A stretch of DNA of 38,212 nt, from positions 1-38,212 of the IMG/VR virus record IMGVR_UViG_3300008111_000049. One strand, given 5' to 3'. The DNA is from a virus. Positions 35-38,212 of this stretch are shown here, one piece after another. Both the position numbers and the translations under genes were made by a program. How positions within the stretch are numbered: position 1 is the stretch's first letter; the number at the start of each line of letters is the position of its first letter. The notes under the pieces were generated by a model. That model saw only the letters and a program-made list of their open reading frames with translations. It ran no database searches and was not told the origin of the DNA.

Positions 35-304
35 ATGATAGAGGTAAAGGAGTCACTCAGATCAGAACTTATACTAACACCAGAAGGTAAATTATTAATG
101 GCCGTGATGATCCAGGCCATAACAGAGATATGCGGTACTAATACGCATAGTAGGAAGGTGTCTTACAATTGGCTTATGAAAGAAAAAAACCCTGTAGCTG
201 ATATATGTCTTATCTTATCAGGATATGATAGACACCATATTGAAAACATGCTCATTCAAAAGTTTGGACATGATGAGTATTATGCTTTAAAAGGAGACTC
301 ATAA
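35..304 (+). CDS. Small hypothetical protein, 89 aa, possibly 5'-truncated by the window edge
   Basis: I do not recognise this protein. It is a soluble, mostly helical small protein ending Y-Y-A-L-K-G-D-S. The ATG used here lacks a convincing ribosome binding site (only AGTAAG lies upstream). The frame stays open to the left edge of the window, so the true start may lie outside it. If the window ends are contiguous, the frame continues backwards through the last bases of the window. Its stop overlaps the start of the cell wall hydrolase gene (TAATG), so the two are probably translationally coupled. It leads a run of small + strand genes typical of early phage accessory regions. Confidence 0.6.
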   Translation: MIEVKESLRSELILTPEGKLLMAVMIQAITEICGTNTHSRKVSYNWLMKEKNPVADICLILSGYDRHHIENMLIQKFGHDEYYALKGDS

Positions 305-1979: not shown

Positions 1980-2031
1980 ACACATATCGCTAATTTATTA
2001 TCTACTTGCAGGCGATCAAGAAATTTTGCTA
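1963..2031. promoter_or_regulatory. Candidate operator: TAGCAAA-type half-sites flanking the clamp promoter
   Basis: TAGCAAAT (1963-1970), TAGCATAC (1974-1981), CGCTAATTT (from 1988) and TTTTGCTA (2024-2031) are related half-sites in both orientations around the promoter. The outer two match the pair in the divergent promoter region at 36030-36064, where TGCTAGCAAA and ATTTTGCTAAA recur. The shared sequence suggests one regulator acting at both sites. No binding protein is identified. Confidence 0.35.
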
Positions 2032-2043
2032 AAGGAGAAAAGC

Positions 2044-2694
2044 ATGACAACATTTAATTATGAAGTATTAGTACAACTTGGCCACTTAAAAGCACTTAAA
2101 CTTTTTGTAGCTAAAAAAGACGTAAGATATTACCTTAATGGTATTTACGTTGAATTCAATAAATATAACACTATCTTTGTTGCAACTGATGGTCACCGAC
2201 TATTAAGTACAGCAGTCTATCATAACGAAGTACAGCACGGTAGAGATACATTAGGAGCAATTATTCCTATTGAAACTATTGATGCCTTACTTAAAGTTAA
2301 GTCAACCCTAGGTGCAGCTAGCATATCATTAGAAGTTGAAAACAATGTAGTTAAGAAAATACACGTTCTTAATGATGCGGTTAGGTTAGAAGCACGTCCA
2401 ATAGAAGGTAAGTATCCTGACTTTAGAAGAGTATTTCCTGAGTCAGTATCTTATGAACCTGGTAATTATGACTTTACATATCTTAATGACTTTAATAAGG
2501 CCGCAGAATATATCTCTGGCGTTAAGAATAAAAAAGCATCATTAAGCCAAAACGGTCTCAAACCAGCATTAGTTGACCTTGACTGTGTTGACTGTGTAGG
2601 TGTTATCTCACCATTAAGAGTTGAGTCATCTATTACAGGCGCACCAAAATTTATATTTGATGAACCTAAAGTATCTGTAAAGGAGGCTGCATAA
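2044..2694 (+). CDS. Shortened beta-type DNA polymerase sliding clamp
   Basis: This 216-residue protein resembles the second half of bacterial DnaN. Residues 27-37 (V-R-Y-Y-L-N-G-I-Y-V-E), 47-53 (A-T-D-G-H-R-L) and 121-132 (E-G-K-Y-P-D-F-R-R-V-F-P) match the classic motifs of E. coli beta domain 2 and the start of domain 3. Domain 1 is absent, and 216 residues is close to a two-domain clamp rather than the roughly 366-residue bacterial protein. The chosen ATG has AAAGGAG upstream; an in-frame TTG at 2026 lies before that site and is less likely. Its role would be tethering polymerase to DNA, presumably host Pol III because no phage polymerase is visible. It begins an operon with the next two genes. 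Confidence 0.8.
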   Translation: MTTFNYEVLVQLGHLKALKLFVAKKDVRYYLNGIYVEFNKYNTIFVATDGHRLLSTAVYHNEVQHGRDTLGAIIPIETIDALLKVKSTLGAASISLEVENNVVKKIHVLNDAVRLEARPIEGKYPDFRRVFPESVSYEPGNYDFTYLNDFNKAAEYISGVKNKKASLSQNGLKPALVDLDCVDCVGVISPLRVESSITGAPKFIFDEPKVSVKEAA

Positions 2695-4411: not shown

Positions 4412-5119
4412 CTATACTATTTTTCCGATCCACCTACCGTTTGTGTTAAGAACCATAGGCATAAGTTTTGGCTGTCCATTGATAATGACACCACATCCTA
4501 CAATGAACCTGCTTTTAAAGTTTTTGGCATAGTCAAACGCCATAGACTTTTGATGTATTAAACATCCTACTTGCATACCCCAAATTAGTGCATCTGGGTT
4601 ACTGTAATATCCAATACTAAATTTAGTGTGGTAGTGGCCCTGGACTGTATTCATTCCATACTGCTGGGCTACCTTTAAAACGTCTGCAACAAGCCCATGT
4701 GTAAAGAAACATCTGGAGTTATCACTTAGGGTTATTGTATGATCATCTACCCATTCCCAACCTTTTCCAACGCCTAAAAACTCGTTATAGTCTTTTAGGT
4801 ATCCTCTAGGCATGCCGTGTTTTAATGCACGTCTATAAACTAATGAGCTATGGTTACTGTGAACCAATGTCATTTTAGGGAATATCTTTTCTAATTCTTT
4901 AATGTATTTTTTAGACTGTTCTAATTCATGGCCTGCTGAATATAAGTCTGGGTTATGTTCGTGCATAGATATAGCATGATGATCTAATTCATCACCTATA
5001 TTTACTACATGGTCAAACTTAAATTGTTTTTTTAGTGCTTTTAAAAATGTAAATGCGTCTGGATGATGGTAAGGAATGTGAAGATCAGATATTACTAATA
5101 CCGACTTATATTTAGACAT
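4412..5119 (-). CDS. Calcineurin-like metallophosphoesterase
   Basis: The 235-residue protein has the metallophosphoesterase motifs in order: S-D-L-H (D12, H14), G-D-E-L-D (42-46), S-N-H (N89, H90), T-H-G (H141) and G-H-Y-H (161-164). These residues bind the two metal ions. Phage members of this superfamily include DNA exonuclease subunits, nucleotide phosphatases and lambda-type protein phosphatases; which applies cannot be told here. AAGGA upstream of the ATG supports the start. It is transcribed late, after the lysis cassette, unlike a replication nuclease, so a role in nucleotide or protein dephosphorylation late in infection is possible. Confidence 0.85.
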   Translation of the reverse strand: MSKYKSVLVISDLHIPYHHPDAFTFLKALKKQFKFDHVVNIGDELDHHAISMHEHNPDLYSAGHELEQSKKYIKELEKIFPKMTLVHSNHSSLVYRRALKHGMPRGYLKDYNEFLGVGKGWEWVDDHTITLSDNSRCFFTHGLVADVLKVAQQYGMNTVQGHYHTKFSIGYYSNPDALIWGMQVGCLIHQKSMAFDYAKNFKSRFIVGCGVIINGQPKLMPMVLNTNGRWIGKIV

Positions 5120-35998: not shown

Positions 35999-36029
35999 CT
36001 GTATCATCCATAGAGCGGTAGTATACTGC

Positions 36030-36064
36030 TAGCAAAAAAATAGAGCAAGAAAAATATTTTGCTA
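36030..36064. promoter_or_regulatory. Candidate operator, inverted repeat TAGCAAAA / TTTTGCTA
   Basis: Perfect eight-base inverted repeats (36030-36037 and 36057-36064) separated by 19 bases lie in the 200-base divergent intergenic region 35934-36133, between the leftward promoter and the probable rightward -35. Similar sequences flank the clamp promoter near 1963-2031. This suits a dimeric repressor or activator site. No other gene is seen in this gap. Confidence 0.4.
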
Positions 36065-36070
36065 AATTAC

Positions 36071-36100
36071 TTGACTTCTATTTTTAAAGAGATCAATATT
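36071..36100 (+). promoter_or_regulatory. Possible rightward early promoter
   Basis: TTGACT (36071-36076) with a weak CAATAT or AATATT about 17-18 bases downstream, in an AT-rich stretch before the gene at 36134. The -10 is poor; activation or a phage-specific factor may be needed. Confidence 0.4.
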
Positions 36101-36133
36101 CGTTTTGTAGTCTTTATTAACTAGGAGAGAATA

Positions 36134-36316
36134 ATGGATACAAACAAAAAATTACCTAACTTAAAACCAGTACCTAAATGTGGTGAATGGGCAAACAATA
36201 ACCCAAACGTATTTGAAAACTTTTTTAATAGAACTGGCCCTCATAGAACTTTAACCATAGATGAAATATTTGCTGACTTTGAAAATGATATTGCAAATAT
36301 CAAAGGAGGTGAGTAA
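36134..36316 (+). CDS. Hypothetical protein, 60 aa
   Basis: Not recognised. The product is hydrophilic, with several Asn and Pro at the N-terminus (K-L-P-N-L-K-P-V-P-K-C-G-E-W) and a charged helix (T-I-D-E-I-F-A-D-F-E-N-D-I-A-N-I). AGGAG is at good distance from the ATG. Its end carries a near-perfect ribosome binding site for the next gene (AAAGGAGGTGA), and the stop overlaps that start by one base. Confidence 0.65.
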   Translation: MDTNKKLPNLKPVPKCGEWANNNPNVFENFFNRTGPHRTLTIDEIFADFENDIANIKGGE

Positions 36317-36429
36317 TGGACGAAAGATGGTTAGACTATGACGAATACTTGGATCAACAAGAATTCTGGCGACAAAAAGAATTAGAAGAGCAGCATCAAT
36401 TAGAACAGCAGGAGAAGCATGATGGATAA
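36316..36429 (+). CDS. 37-aa acidic/Gln-rich peptide
   Basis: A very short gene with the best Shine-Dalgarno in the window (AAAGGAGGTGA, six bases before the ATG). The product is W- and Q-rich with a likely coiled coil (D-Q-Q-E-F-W-R-Q-K-E-L-E-E-Q-H-Q-L-E-Q-Q). Unknown function; the strong translation signal argues for a real gene. It overlaps the next start by 11 bases. Confidence 0.6.
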   Translation: MDERWLDYDEYLDQQEFWRQKELEEQHQLEQQEKHDG

Positions 36430-36628
36430 CTGGGGATGGGATAAAAATAAACACCAGACCTGGTATAACCAATGGGACTTTAAAACTCCTAGGACTTATA
36501 GAGAGCGTTATGGTATTGACTATAAACGTGATCAAAGTTTTGAAGAAGAAACACTTGCGTCTAATAGTTTTATTGTGATAGTGTTATTACTCATCTTAAT
36601 TTACGGAGGTTTTTTATGGATGAATTAA
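36419..36628 (+). CDS. Small tail-anchored membrane protein, 69 aa
   Basis: Not recognised. The first 45 residues are Trp/Tyr-rich and charged (N-W-G-W-D-K-N-K-H-Q-T-W-Y, R-E-R-Y-G-I-D-Y-K-R). The last 18 form a single membrane span (S-F-I-V-I-V-L-L-L-I-L-I-Y-G-G-F-L-W). A small early inner-membrane protein; possible roles include superinfection exclusion, but nothing proves it. Two ATGs are adjacent (36419 and 36422), and GGAG lies upstream of both. Confidence 0.65.
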   Translation: MMDNWGWDKNKHQTWYNQWDFKTPRTYRERYGIDYKRDQSFEEETLASNSFIVIVLLLILIYGGFLWMN

Positions 36629-36762
36629 ATAGAATTATTGAGCAATTACAGCTAATGAATGAAGATCTACGTGAGTCAAATGACAAAGCAGATCAAAAAG
36701 AACATTACATTAGAGAATTACAAATTAAACAGTTACAGGAGAGTAAAGATGACAGTCTTTAA
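36616..36762 (+). CDS. 48-aa coiled-coil peptide
   Basis: The start has GGAGG six bases upstream and overlaps the previous gene by 13 bases. The product is charged and helical with heptad-like spacing (L-N-R-I-I-E-Q-L-Q-L-M-N-E-D-L). It ends in the same bases as the ERF start (14-base overlap). Unknown; it may be a small interaction partner. Confidence 0.6.
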   Translation: MDELNRIIEQLQLMNEDLRESNDKADQKEHYIRELQIKQLQESKDDSL

Positions 36763-37291
36763 AAAATTACAGGAAGCACGCATCAAGCTACAAAATACTG
36801 ATCTGAAAAAGTCAGGCCTTAATAAATTTGCAGGATATAAATATTTTGAGTTAGGTGACTTCTTACCTACCATTCAGAATATATGTAATGAAATTGGTTT
36901 ATGTGGCCATGTTACTTTTTATACAGATATAGCAATTTTAAGTATTACTGACGTAGAAGATCCGGCTCAGTTTATAGAGTTTAAATGCCCTATGTCTTCA
37001 GCAGCTTTAAAAGGTTGTCATGAAGTACAAAATTTGGGAGCTGTGCAGACCTATTTGAGAAGGTATCTTTGGACAAATGCGTTTGAGATAGTTGAGCATG
37101 ACGCTATTGACTCAGCTAGACCTGTTGAGCCTGAAGCAGAAGTTATTACTGAAGCTGATATTGAAAAAGCTAAAGATACATTAACTGAAGCCAATGCTAA
37201 AGGTGAACTTAAAAAAGCATTCTTTGCATTAGGCCCAGTACTGCAAGAAAAACTACGTGAGTTTGCTAACGAACTTAAGAAGTCTGCATGA
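36749..37291 (+). CDS. ERF-family single-strand annealing protein
   Basis: The 180-residue protein has K-S-G-L-N-K-F-A-G-Y-K-Y-F-E-L-G-D-F-L-P (21-40) and the key E-V-Q-N-L-G-A-V-Q-T-Y-L-R-R-Y-L (92-107), then N-A-F-E-I-V-E-H-D (110-118), the ERF signature. It anneals complementary single strands during recombination. The ATG at 36749 has GGAG upstream; an in-frame start at 36659 is inside the previous gene and is rejected. It is followed at a four-base overlap by the exonuclease, forming a phage recombination pair. Confidence 0.85.
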   Translation: MTVFKKLQEARIKLQNTDLKKSGLNKFAGYKYFELGDFLPTIQNICNEIGLCGHVTFYTDIAILSITDVEDPAQFIEFKCPMSSAALKGCHEVQNLGAVQTYLRRYLWTNAFEIVEHDAIDSARPVEPEAEVITEADIEKAKDTLTEANAKGELKKAFFALGPVLQEKLREFANELKKSA

Positions 37292-37836
37292 GTCATTTAA
37301 GTGATAATAGACGTCATAACGTAATTACGGCCAGCAATGCCTGGTCGGCTGTATATGAAAGACAAAAGTTATGGCGTCAAATGACTTTACGTGAGCCACC
37401 GTTTGAAGGTAATGACATGACTGAATATGGAAATATTCATGAGCCTATTGCATTATCTGCATTAGAAAAAGAGTTTGATGACATTGTAGAGCCTGGTAAC
37501 AAATTTGTGTTACATGACAAATTACCATTTGGTGCAAGTCCGGATGGGTACTACCAAGGAAACGTCATTGAGATCAAGTGTCCCTATACTCAAGTAATAT
37601 ATCCTGAGATCCCAGAGCGCTATTACTTTCAAATGCAAATGCAAATGGAAGTATGTAAAATGCCTCACGCTTATTTTTATATATGGACACCTACTGAAAC
37701 AAAAATACAAGTAGTAGACAGAAGTAAAGCATGGCTTGAATGGTATACGCCATTAGCGCTAGAGTTTATGAAATATGTTGAAGATGACATAGAGCCTAAA
37801 CGCTGGACTAAAAAACCAATTTTTAATAAGGAGTAA
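37288..37836 (+). CDS. YqaJ-type viral recombinase exonuclease (lambda Exo-like)
   Basis: The 182-residue protein shows motifs of lambda exonuclease/YqaJ in order: Y-G-N-I-H-E-P-I-A (47-55, E52), F-G-A-S-P-D-G-Y (81-88, D86), V-I-E-I-K-C-P (93-99, E95 and K97) and Y-Y-F-Q-M-Q-M-Q-M (112-120). It degrades 5' ends of double-stranded DNA to give 3' overhangs for ERF. The start overlaps the ERF stop (ATGA). The set ERF-Exo-SSB-like is a complete homologous recombination cassette. Confidence 0.9.
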   Translation: MSHLSDNRRHNVITASNAWSAVYERQKLWRQMTLREPPFEGNDMTEYGNIHEPIALSALEKEFDDIVEPGNKFVLHDKLPFGASPDGYYQGNVIEIKCPYTQVIYPEIPERYYFQMQMQMEVCKMPHAYFYIWTPTETKIQVVDRSKAWLEWYTPLALEFMKYVEDDIEPKRWTKKPIFNKE

Positions 37837-37839
37837 AGT

Positions 37840-38076
37840 ATGGCTGAATATGATAATAATAATAGAGCTGCAGGTTGGCTACGTGAAAGTAAAACAGGAA
37901 ATAAATATATTTCATTAATGCTTAATGTAGAAGGTAAAGAATATACATTAGCATTGTTTAAGAATGAAGTAGAAGAAGGATCTAAAAGACCGGTGTATAC
38001 AGGTAAAATTACACCAAAAGGCGAGTATGCTCCAAGTGGGCCGGCAGTTGAAGGTGAAGAGGATGTGCCGTTTTAA
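37840..38076 (+). CDS. Putative single-stranded DNA-binding (DUF736/SSB-like) protein
   Basis: The 78-residue protein has A-G-W-L-R-E-S-K-T-G-N-K-Y-I-S-L-M-L, a strand pattern like DUF736 and small phage SSBs. It ends E-E-D-V-P-F, like the acidic tip of bacterial SSB (usually D-D-D-I-P-F), which docks replication and repair proteins. AAGGAG before the ATG is good. Position right after ERF and the exonuclease fits a recombination role. A perfect OB-fold match cannot be shown from this sequence alone. Confidence 0.7.
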   Translation: MAEYDNNNRAAGWLRESKTGNKYISLMLNVEGKEYTLALFKNEVEEGSKRPVYTGKITPKGEYAPSGPAVEGEEDVPF

Positions 38077-38085
38077 GGCGCATCC
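38061..38085. terminator. Hairpin overlapping the SSB-like stop, between convergent genes
   Basis: GGATGTGCC (38061-38069) pairs with GGCGCATCC (38077-38085), nine pairs with one G-U, loop of seven bases containing the stop. It lies between the + strand gene ending at 38076 and the minus-strand pqqA stop at 38097. Neither side has a good T tract, so it may act as a weak bidirectional terminator or stabilise mRNA ends. Confidence 0.45.
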
Positions 38086-38096
38086 CCATACACATA

Positions 38097-38168
38097 TTAC
38101 TTGTTCATTACGTACATTGTGACTTCAAAGCCGAAACGCATTTCTGTAACTGCTGGAGTTGTCCACAT
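38097..38168 (-). CDS. pqqA: PqqA, ribosomal precursor peptide of pyrroloquinoline quinone (PQQ)
   Basis: The 23-residue product begins M-W-T-T-P-A-V-T-E-M and continues R-F-G-F-E-V-T-M-Y, ending V-M-N-K. Length, the opening M-W-x-x-P-A, R11, G13 and E15-V-T-x-Y19 match bacterial PqqA exactly. E15 and Y19 are the residues that PqqE crosslinks to make PQQ, the cofactor of methanol and other quinoprotein dehydrogenases. A GAGGA ribosome binding site is seven bases upstream of the ATG. At 72 bases it is shorter than usual gene-finder cut-offs. It is the only minus-strand gene at this edge and has no pqqB-E companions, so it would feed the host's PQQ pathway. The flanking upstream 44 bases contain a 10-base palindrome (GCAATATTGC, 38192-38201). 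Identity is strong; physiological role is inferred. Confidence 0.9.
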   Translation of the reverse strand: MWTTPAVTEMRFGFEVTMYVMNK

Positions 38169-38212
38169 GATATATTCCTCGGTTAGTTAATGCAATATTG
38201 CCATTTCATTAT

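What the first reader, a model, noticed from the sequence alone, without database searches (positions are those of the whole stretch)
38097..38168. A phage-encoded pqqA: the PQQ precursor peptide as an auxiliary metabolic gene
Seen: a 23-codon minus-strand gene with a good ribosome binding site whose product matches PqqA over its whole length, keeping E15 and Y19 at the exact spacing that the radical SAM enzyme PqqE joins. Known: PqqA is the only substrate peptide for PQQ; PqqD chaperones it and PqqE, PqqF/G, PqqB and PqqC process it; PQQ serves methanol and glucose dehydrogenases. Inferred: the phage supplies substrate to boost PQQ and so quinoprotein (for example XoxF/MxaF) activity in a methylotrophic host, or it acts as a competitor or decoy. 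A phage carrying only the precursor of a RiPP cofactor, without the enzymes, would be an unusual and economical form of metabolic takeover. I do not recall a described case.
Basis: partly seen in the sequence, partly recalled or inferred. Interest (0 to 1): 0.95.

Follow-up and report, generated by a model that had tools for sequence, protein, structure and literature searches.

The report
Hidden pqqA genes in methylotroph phages
Viruses that infect methanol-eating bacteria carry a tiny, overlooked gene for the raw-material peptide of the cofactor PQQ, kept intact in several unrelated virus groups, which suggests that they feed the host's own cofactor assembly line during infection.

Summary
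Window 38097-38168 (-) encodes a 23-residue PqqA well over both curated profile cut-offs, with E15 and Y19. It is no contig-end artefact: relative L411 is identical to the terminal 1500 bases at both window ends and joins them across 20 bases. It is also not unique: two capped IMG/VR scans gave 146 complete copies, and ten named phage records carry it (P19250A, MEP301, Venkman, MEP401/402, four Melnitz, MW202481); in the 7 whose annotation I viewed it is unannotated or under a wrong-strand ORF. In an E15/Y19-blind scan 119 of 119 complete sites keep both residues and the same stop. Among relatives found through a neighbouring gene, with room to tell, 66 of 66 (window lineage), 59 of 64 (P19250A lineage) but only 3 of 9 (MEP401 lineage) hold it. 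No PqqB/C/D/E over cut-off in 48 records. Host-family genomes carry 1-12 pqqA copies. Best reading: the phage adds dosage of the one PQQ component that is consumed, and host enzymes do the rest; the effect on PQQ is inferred. PqqA in a phage was reported in 2020 (Lake Baikal, with methanol dehydrogenase); its spread, near-fixation in two lineages and stand-alone form were not found in the papers searched.

The parts
38097..38168 (-). pqqA: 23-residue PQQ precursor peptide PqqA (72 bases with stop), E15 and Y19 intact
   Evidence: conserved in relatives
38176..38180 (-). Shine-Dalgarno sequence GAGGA, seven bases before the ATG
   Evidence: read; such a 4-mer in 154 of 154 sites
37840..38076 (+). 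neighbour convergent with pqqA; position and weak similarity match the gene annotated as single-stranded DNA-binding protein in MW202481; no family hit of its own
37288..37836 (+). RecE-like exonuclease; used as the pqqA-independent anchor for the lineage test
36659..37291 (+). Erf-like ssDNA annealing protein
35..304 (+). small protein, relatives of which lie on the other side of pqqA in L003, L017, L046 and L112: the contig start follows the contig end
304..657 (+). cell wall hydrolase (PF07486), next gene in the same order

Best explanation
The phage carries a working pqqA as a stand-alone gene and uses it as extra dosage of the one component of PQQ synthesis that is consumed (one peptide per cofactor). 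The 23-residue peptide is made from a strong ribosome binding site, bound by host PqqD, cross-linked E15-Y19 by host PqqE and finished by host protease, PqqB and PqqC. PQQ then keeps host quinoproteins, above all methanol dehydrogenase, supplied through a long infection in which host transcripts fall. Shown here: family membership, intact frame, E15/Y19, purifying selection, no PqqB/C/D/E found in the phages, enzymes and several pqqA copies in the hosts. Inferred: translation during infection, processing by host enzymes, PQQ as the limiting factor, benefit to phage yield, and the window's host (Methylophilales).
For: Profile hits over curated cut-offs. In a scan whose pattern leaves E15 and Y19 free, 119 of 119 complete sites keep both and end after residue 23; one more is cut by a contig end. 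Start codon and Shine-Dalgarno in 154 of 154. pN/pS 0.055 in 34 distinct alleles found through the exonuclease, not through pqqA; 0.017 for residues 14-19 in the blind scan. pqqA present in 66 of 66 exonuclease relatives with at least 700 bases beyond the gene, 80 of 129 relatives examined; in 59 of 64 relatives of P19250A gp31 with room. PqqE, B, C and D over cut-off in 0 of 48 phage records; PqqE over cut-off in 13 of 14 hosts, PqqC and PqqD in 4 of 4. Host-family genomes: 120 of 120 have pqqA, 1-12 copies, median 4, two or more in 113; a published survey gives 3-12 pqqA but normally one copy of the other pqq genes (PMC4109929, passages). In LSUCC0665 none of three pqqA copies lies within 100 kb of pqqCDE, so host PqqA itself can be encoded apart from its enzymes. 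One of 48 records, a 72-kb contig, carries pqqA, a PQQ methanol/ethanol dehydrogenase and formate dehydrogenase alpha, as Baikal VP_266 carries PqqA and methanol dehydrogenase.
Against: No transcript, peptide or PQQ measurement exists here. Hosts already hold several copies, so one more could matter little. PQQ-dehydrogenase was found in 1 of 48 records only. Carriage is not universal: 6 of 9 MEP401-gp67 relatives with room lack it, and 5 of 64 P19250A-gp31 relatives (two of them 84-87% identical). The promoter scan of window 36000-38212 found fewer promoter-like sites than shuffles and no terminator, so the window's own promoter is not identified. In the P19250A lineage no exact TATAAT lies upstream in 63 of 63.
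Confidence: 0.75

Rival explanations
1. Decoy: phage PqqA floods PqqD/PqqE and lowers host PQQ, shutting down periplasmic methanol oxidation.
For: An intact substrate could compete with other work of PqqD/PqqE; no level was measured.
Against: A decoy has no need of the cross-linked residues, yet E15 and Y19 stay in 119 of 119 sites of a scan blind to them, and residues 14-19 show pN/pS 0.017. A competing but complete substrate still ends as PQQ. A phage contig that also brings methanol dehydrogenase points the other way.
Confidence: 0.07
2. PqqA has a second role, for example as a signal, regulator or anti-defence peptide, and the phage uses that one.
For: A RiPP family annotated PqqA is co-expressed with two defence systems in ocean data (PMC11118758, one passage). 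Conservation of the whole peptide would look the same.
Against: No defence function of PqqA is shown in the passage seen. In the phage collection the peptide was found only in phages of methylotrophs or of unrecorded host and in mislabelled bacterial contigs, as expected of a PQQ role.
Confidence: 0.1
3. DNA- or RNA-level role: attachment site, recombination target or RNA sponge.
For: The stretch is short and resembles host genes; two exact nucleotide sequences are shared between phage and host sets.
Against: Synonymous sites differ widely (pS 0.39 in one lineage, 0.60 pooled) while the protein holds. Start codon and Shine-Dalgarno hold in 154 of 154.
Confidence: 0.03
4. Passenger or artefact: host DNA in the assembly, or a gene recently picked up and not selected.
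For: The gene lies 44 bases from the contig end. Two 'Acinetobacter phage' records with pqqA look like bacterial contigs.
Against: L411 bridges the window ends; same order in 13 records; 66 of 66 in the lineage; pN/pS 0.055; isolates carry it.
Confidence: 0.01

Closest known systems
Cellular PqqA (PF08042, TIGR02107) of Methylophilaceae
   Same: Length, W-x-x-P start, R11, G13, E15, Y19 and nearly every residue; hosts also carry orphan extra copies.
   Different: Lies in a phage genome, with no other pqq gene over cut-off.
Lake Baikal virus population VP_266 (PMC7678222; passages read)
   Same: PqqA in a predicted Methylophilaceae phage, read there as an auxiliary metabolic gene for methanol oxidation.
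   Different: T4-like and with methanol dehydrogenase. The window and most contigs here are small phages with pqqA and no PQQ-dehydrogenase. That paper states that P19250A has none of these genes; P19250A has an unannotated pqqA.
Virus-encoded pqqA/pqqE/pqqD of reservoir sediments (PMC13188868; passages read)
   Same: pqq genes on viral contigs.
   Different: Treated as phosphate-solubilising genes; no alignment, context or selection seen in the passages.
Auxiliary metabolic genes at large, such as cyanophage psbA (recalled)
   Same: Host-type metabolic gene kept under selection in phages of that host.
   Different: psbA and the like encode working proteins; here the gene product is the consumed substrate of a ribosomal-peptide cofactor.

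Membership tests
PqqA (PF08042 / TIGR02107) | Profile match over the curated cut-off | tested here: met
   41.6 vs 21.1 bits; 44.8 vs 20 bits
PqqA (PF08042 / TIGR02107) | Glu and Tyr separated by three residues, joined by PqqE | tested here: met
   E15, Y19 in the window and in 119 of 119 complete sites of the blind scan
PqqA (PF08042 / TIGR02107) | Short free-standing peptide of about 22-24 residues with its own start and ribosome binding site | tested here: met
   154 of 154
PqqA (PF08042 / TIGR02107) | Bound by PqqD and cross-linked by PqqE, ends as PQQ | not testable with these tools
   needs biochemistry
PQQ biosynthesis gene cluster (pqqABCDE) | pqqB, C, D and E beside pqqA | tested here: not met
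   none over cut-off in 48 records including the window; PqqB had no positive control genome in my runs
Auxiliary metabolic gene | Gene of host metabolism in a true phage genome, not host contamination | tested here: met
Auxiliary metabolic gene | Kept by selection in the phage | tested here: met
   pN/pS 0.055; 66 of 66 in the lineage
Auxiliary metabolic gene | Expressed in infection and changes host metabolism | not testable with these tools
   needs infected cultures

The most novel reading that the evidence does not exclude
Phages of PQQ-making methylotrophs have repeatedly taken up, and in some lineages fixed, the precursor peptide alone: a 'substrate-only' takeover in which the virus supplies the consumed raw material of a ribosomal-peptide cofactor and leaves catalysis to the host. 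The gene escaped notice because it is below the usual gene-caller size, and PQQ supply is a limiting factor of methylophage production.
Probability: 0.5. Interest if true: 0.85.

Novelty: new variant of a known kind. Interest (0 to 1): 0.72.

Why it matters
If true, a cofactor supply line, not only the enzyme, is a point of viral control over methanol oxidation by OM43 and LD28, abundant one-carbon bacteria of sea and lakes. It shows that useful phage genes of 20-odd codons are missed by standard annotation even in isolated, published phages. It makes an experiment direct, because phage-host pairs with the gene (P19250A, MEP301, Venkman, MEP401/402, Melnitz) exist in culture. It also offers pqqA as a marker of host: the T4-like Melnitz is described as close to SAR11 myophages (PMC9004378, passages), yet carries pqqA, while no Pelagibacter phage appeared in the 12 records with a match.

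Tried and rejected
Three DNA patterns of mine were mis-spaced. One search (23 N instead of 22) gave five chance hits, L011-L015, which I dropped; two searches gave nothing for the same reason. One search is the corrected form.

Considered and rejected: contig-end artefact; attachment site or RNA role (synonymous divergence); a dead decoy. The two Acinetobacter 'phage' records (144,066 and 13,355 bp) were dropped from counts because the stretches read carry pqqBCDE and cellular genes. L262 was dropped from counts of complete sites because a contig end cuts it. One search used 152 of 154 sites (full-length, unambiguous, 22 codons after Met). Pooled pN/pS (0.18 phage, 0.15 host) is biased by the search patterns; one search uses only the positions each pattern left free, and a pqqA-independent set. 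All are uncorrected counts.

A general promoter claim was weakened: exact TATAAT lies upstream in 56 of 150 pqqA genes, against 27 of 150 on the antisense strand and 5.7% of random windows; in 48 of 70 of the window lineage against 19 of 70 antisense and 6.2% random; and in 0 of 63 of the P19250A lineage. The group count is soft: 40 records gave 6, 13 or 18 groups at 10, 20 or 30% shared ORFs, on ORFs of at least 60 aa, with some contigs fetched in part. Sub-threshold matches: PqqE 27.7 bits in one record and PqqD 15.2 bits with a stop in one record.

Full report
WHAT IS THERE. Window 38097-38168, minus strand, reads MWTTPAVTEMRFGFEVTMYVMNK and stop, seven bases after a GAGGA. It passes the PqqA cut-offs of Pfam (41.6 vs 21.1 bits) and NCBIfam (44.8 vs 20 bits, equivalog). 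The window is a tailed phage: terminase, portal, major head protein, DnaB-like helicase, Erf, RecE-like exonuclease. It holds one pqqA, and PqqE, B, C and D are absent at cut-off.

NOT A CONTIG-END ARTEFACT. The gene starts 44 bases from the contig end. L411, found through the window's exonuclease, is identical to the last 1500 and to the first 1500 window bases and has 20 bases between them, so the window is a cut-open circular or permuted map and pqqA is internal. In 13 other records (12 IMG/VR and MW202481) pqqA lies between Erf/exonuclease/SSB-like relatives on one side and relatives of the window's first genes on the other.

HOW WIDESPREAD. tblastn in 50,697 phage records gave 12 with a match. 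Two are Acinetobacter contigs carrying pqqBCDE and cellular genes. Ten remain: P19250A, MEP301, Venkman, MEP401, MEP402, four Melnitz, and MW202481 (Manatee Spring, host unrecorded). In the seven whose annotation I viewed pqqA is not annotated: five bear nothing there, and MW202481 and Melnitz EXVC044M have a hypothetical ORF on the other strand. A second pattern, for residues 2-13 only, also stopped at 120 rows and added 27 loci; L262 is cut by its contig end, which leaves 146 complete IMG/VR sites.

SUBSTRATE RESIDUES. The second pattern does not look at E15 or Y19. Of its 120 sites, 119 are complete; 119 of 119 have E15, Y19 and a stop after residue 23. Across 154 sites (window, seven named records, 146 IMG/VR) all start with ATG and have a Shine-Dalgarno-like 4-mer, against 10.9% of random windows.

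A TEST THAT DOES NOT USE pqqA TO FIND pqqA. Through the window's exonuclease I obtained the best 80 of 129 relatives in IMG/VR. 66 have at least 700 bases beyond the gene: 66 of 66 hold an intact pqqA. Of the 14 shorter ones 8 hold it; the other 6 end within 355 bases. In 73 of the 74 it lies 314-544 bases beyond the exonuclease, in one 1,523. 34 distinct alleles give pS 0.39, pN 0.022, ratio 0.055. With P19250A gp31 as anchor I had 80 of 81 relatives: 64 had room, 59 hold pqqA; of the 5 without, two are 84-87% identical and three 31-48%. With MEP401 gp67 as anchor, 12 relatives: 9 had room, 3 hold it, 6 do not. In these 11 loci without pqqA nothing matches more than 8 of 23 consensus residues: the gene is whole or absent, with no decay seen.

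TWO WAYS OF BEING EXPRESSED. In the window lineage pqqA runs against its neighbours, and 48 of 70 have an exact TATAAT 39-56 bases before the ATG (19 of 70 on the antisense strand, 6.2% of random windows). The window itself is not among those with an exact TATAAT, and its region scan shows no promoter excess. In the P19250A lineage pqqA follows the early genes on their strand, has no TATAAT (0 of 63), and 56 of 63 are followed within 69 bases by a GGGGC...GCCCC-T hairpin, out of 59 such hairpins in 467,618 bases of these loci. Two contigs without pqqA run straight into the same hairpin, a clean empty site.

UNRELATED PHAGES. By shared ORFs, 40 records fall into 6, 13 or 18 groups at 10, 20 or 30% (soft, since some are fragments). 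The window shares 19 ORFs with MW202481 and 14 with Venkman, but 2 with P19250A, 2 with MEP301 and 1 each with MEP401, MEP402 and Melnitz. Terminase families differ too: phrog_3717 in the window, phrog_9 in a P19250A relative, phrog_38 in the contig of L039 and phrog_2 in that of L035. Megablast of 6 kb of Venkman against the phage collection finds, besides itself, only 85 bases of MW202481, which are pqqA and its ribosome binding site. Repeated gain or exchange is the simplest account; 66 bases are too few for a gene tree, so I built none.

HOSTS. All 120 genomes drawn from the family of LSUCC0665 (Methylophilaceae bacterium) carry pqqA: 1-12 copies, mean 4.2, median 4, two or more in 113. 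PqqE is over cut-off in 13 of 14 (one copy in 11, two in 2; the 14th is a single-cell genome), PqqC and PqqD once in 4 of 4. In LSUCC0665 the three pqqA lie about 110 kb or more from pqqCDE. The literature agrees: 3-12 pqqA against one set of the others (PMC4109929, passages), and five pqqA in a PQQ producer, three of them alone on the chromosome (PMC9851590, passages). The phage gene is built like the host's own orphan copies.

MECHANISM. Hosts multiply pqqA only; the phages carry pqqA only; the residues kept are those of the substrate. So I read the phage gene as dosage of substrate. The link to methanol oxidation is inferred, helped by the contig of L057, which holds pqqA, a PQQ methanol/ethanol dehydrogenase (607.9 bits, cut-off 480) and directly behind it formate dehydrogenase alpha (884.8 bits, cut-off 666). 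It is an IMG/VR record; of 16 further ORFs checked several match phage families, but none a structural one. Only 1 of 48 records has such a dehydrogenase.

NOVELTY. Ten paper searches gave two reports of pqqA on viral contigs (PMC7678222, PMC13188868). Four papers on cultured OM43 phages hold no mention of a phage pqq gene (word searches; section 'Metabolic capacity' of PMC10580990 read). The P19250A paper itself is not in the library and I did not see it. So 'PqqA in a phage' is known; its occurrence alone, across unrelated cultured methylophages, near-fixed in two lineages, is not in what I searched.

Noticed in passing
L342:13989-18783 (contig of L057, IMGVR_UViG_3300025120_009955): A PQQ methanol/ethanol dehydrogenase gene directly followed by formate dehydrogenase alpha, on a 72-kb viral contig that also has pqqA and ribonucleotide reductase; no structural phage gene among the ORFs checked.
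   Followed up: partly
L009, L010: Two records named Acinetobacter phage MD-2021a hold pqqBCDE beside ordinary cellular genes and look like bacterial contigs.
   Followed up: partly
L018, L027, L032, L038, L039, L042, L089, L093: PqqA of viral contigs with a different middle part (for example TYETIRLGFEVTMYFKNR), perhaps phages of PQQ makers outside Methylophilaceae.
   Followed up: no
L192 / genome of LSUCC0665: A complete streamlined OM43-type genome has three pqqA copies, none at the pqqCDE locus.
   Followed up: partly
window 4412-5119 (-): Calcineurin-like phosphoesterase (PF00149), with relatives of 81-91% identity in many pqqA contigs; such a gene is also listed among OM43 phage metabolic genes (PMC10580990).
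   Followed up: partly
window 2026-2694 (+): Match to the central domain of the DNA polymerase sliding clamp (PF02767); no relative found in the pqqA loci held at that time.
   Followed up: no
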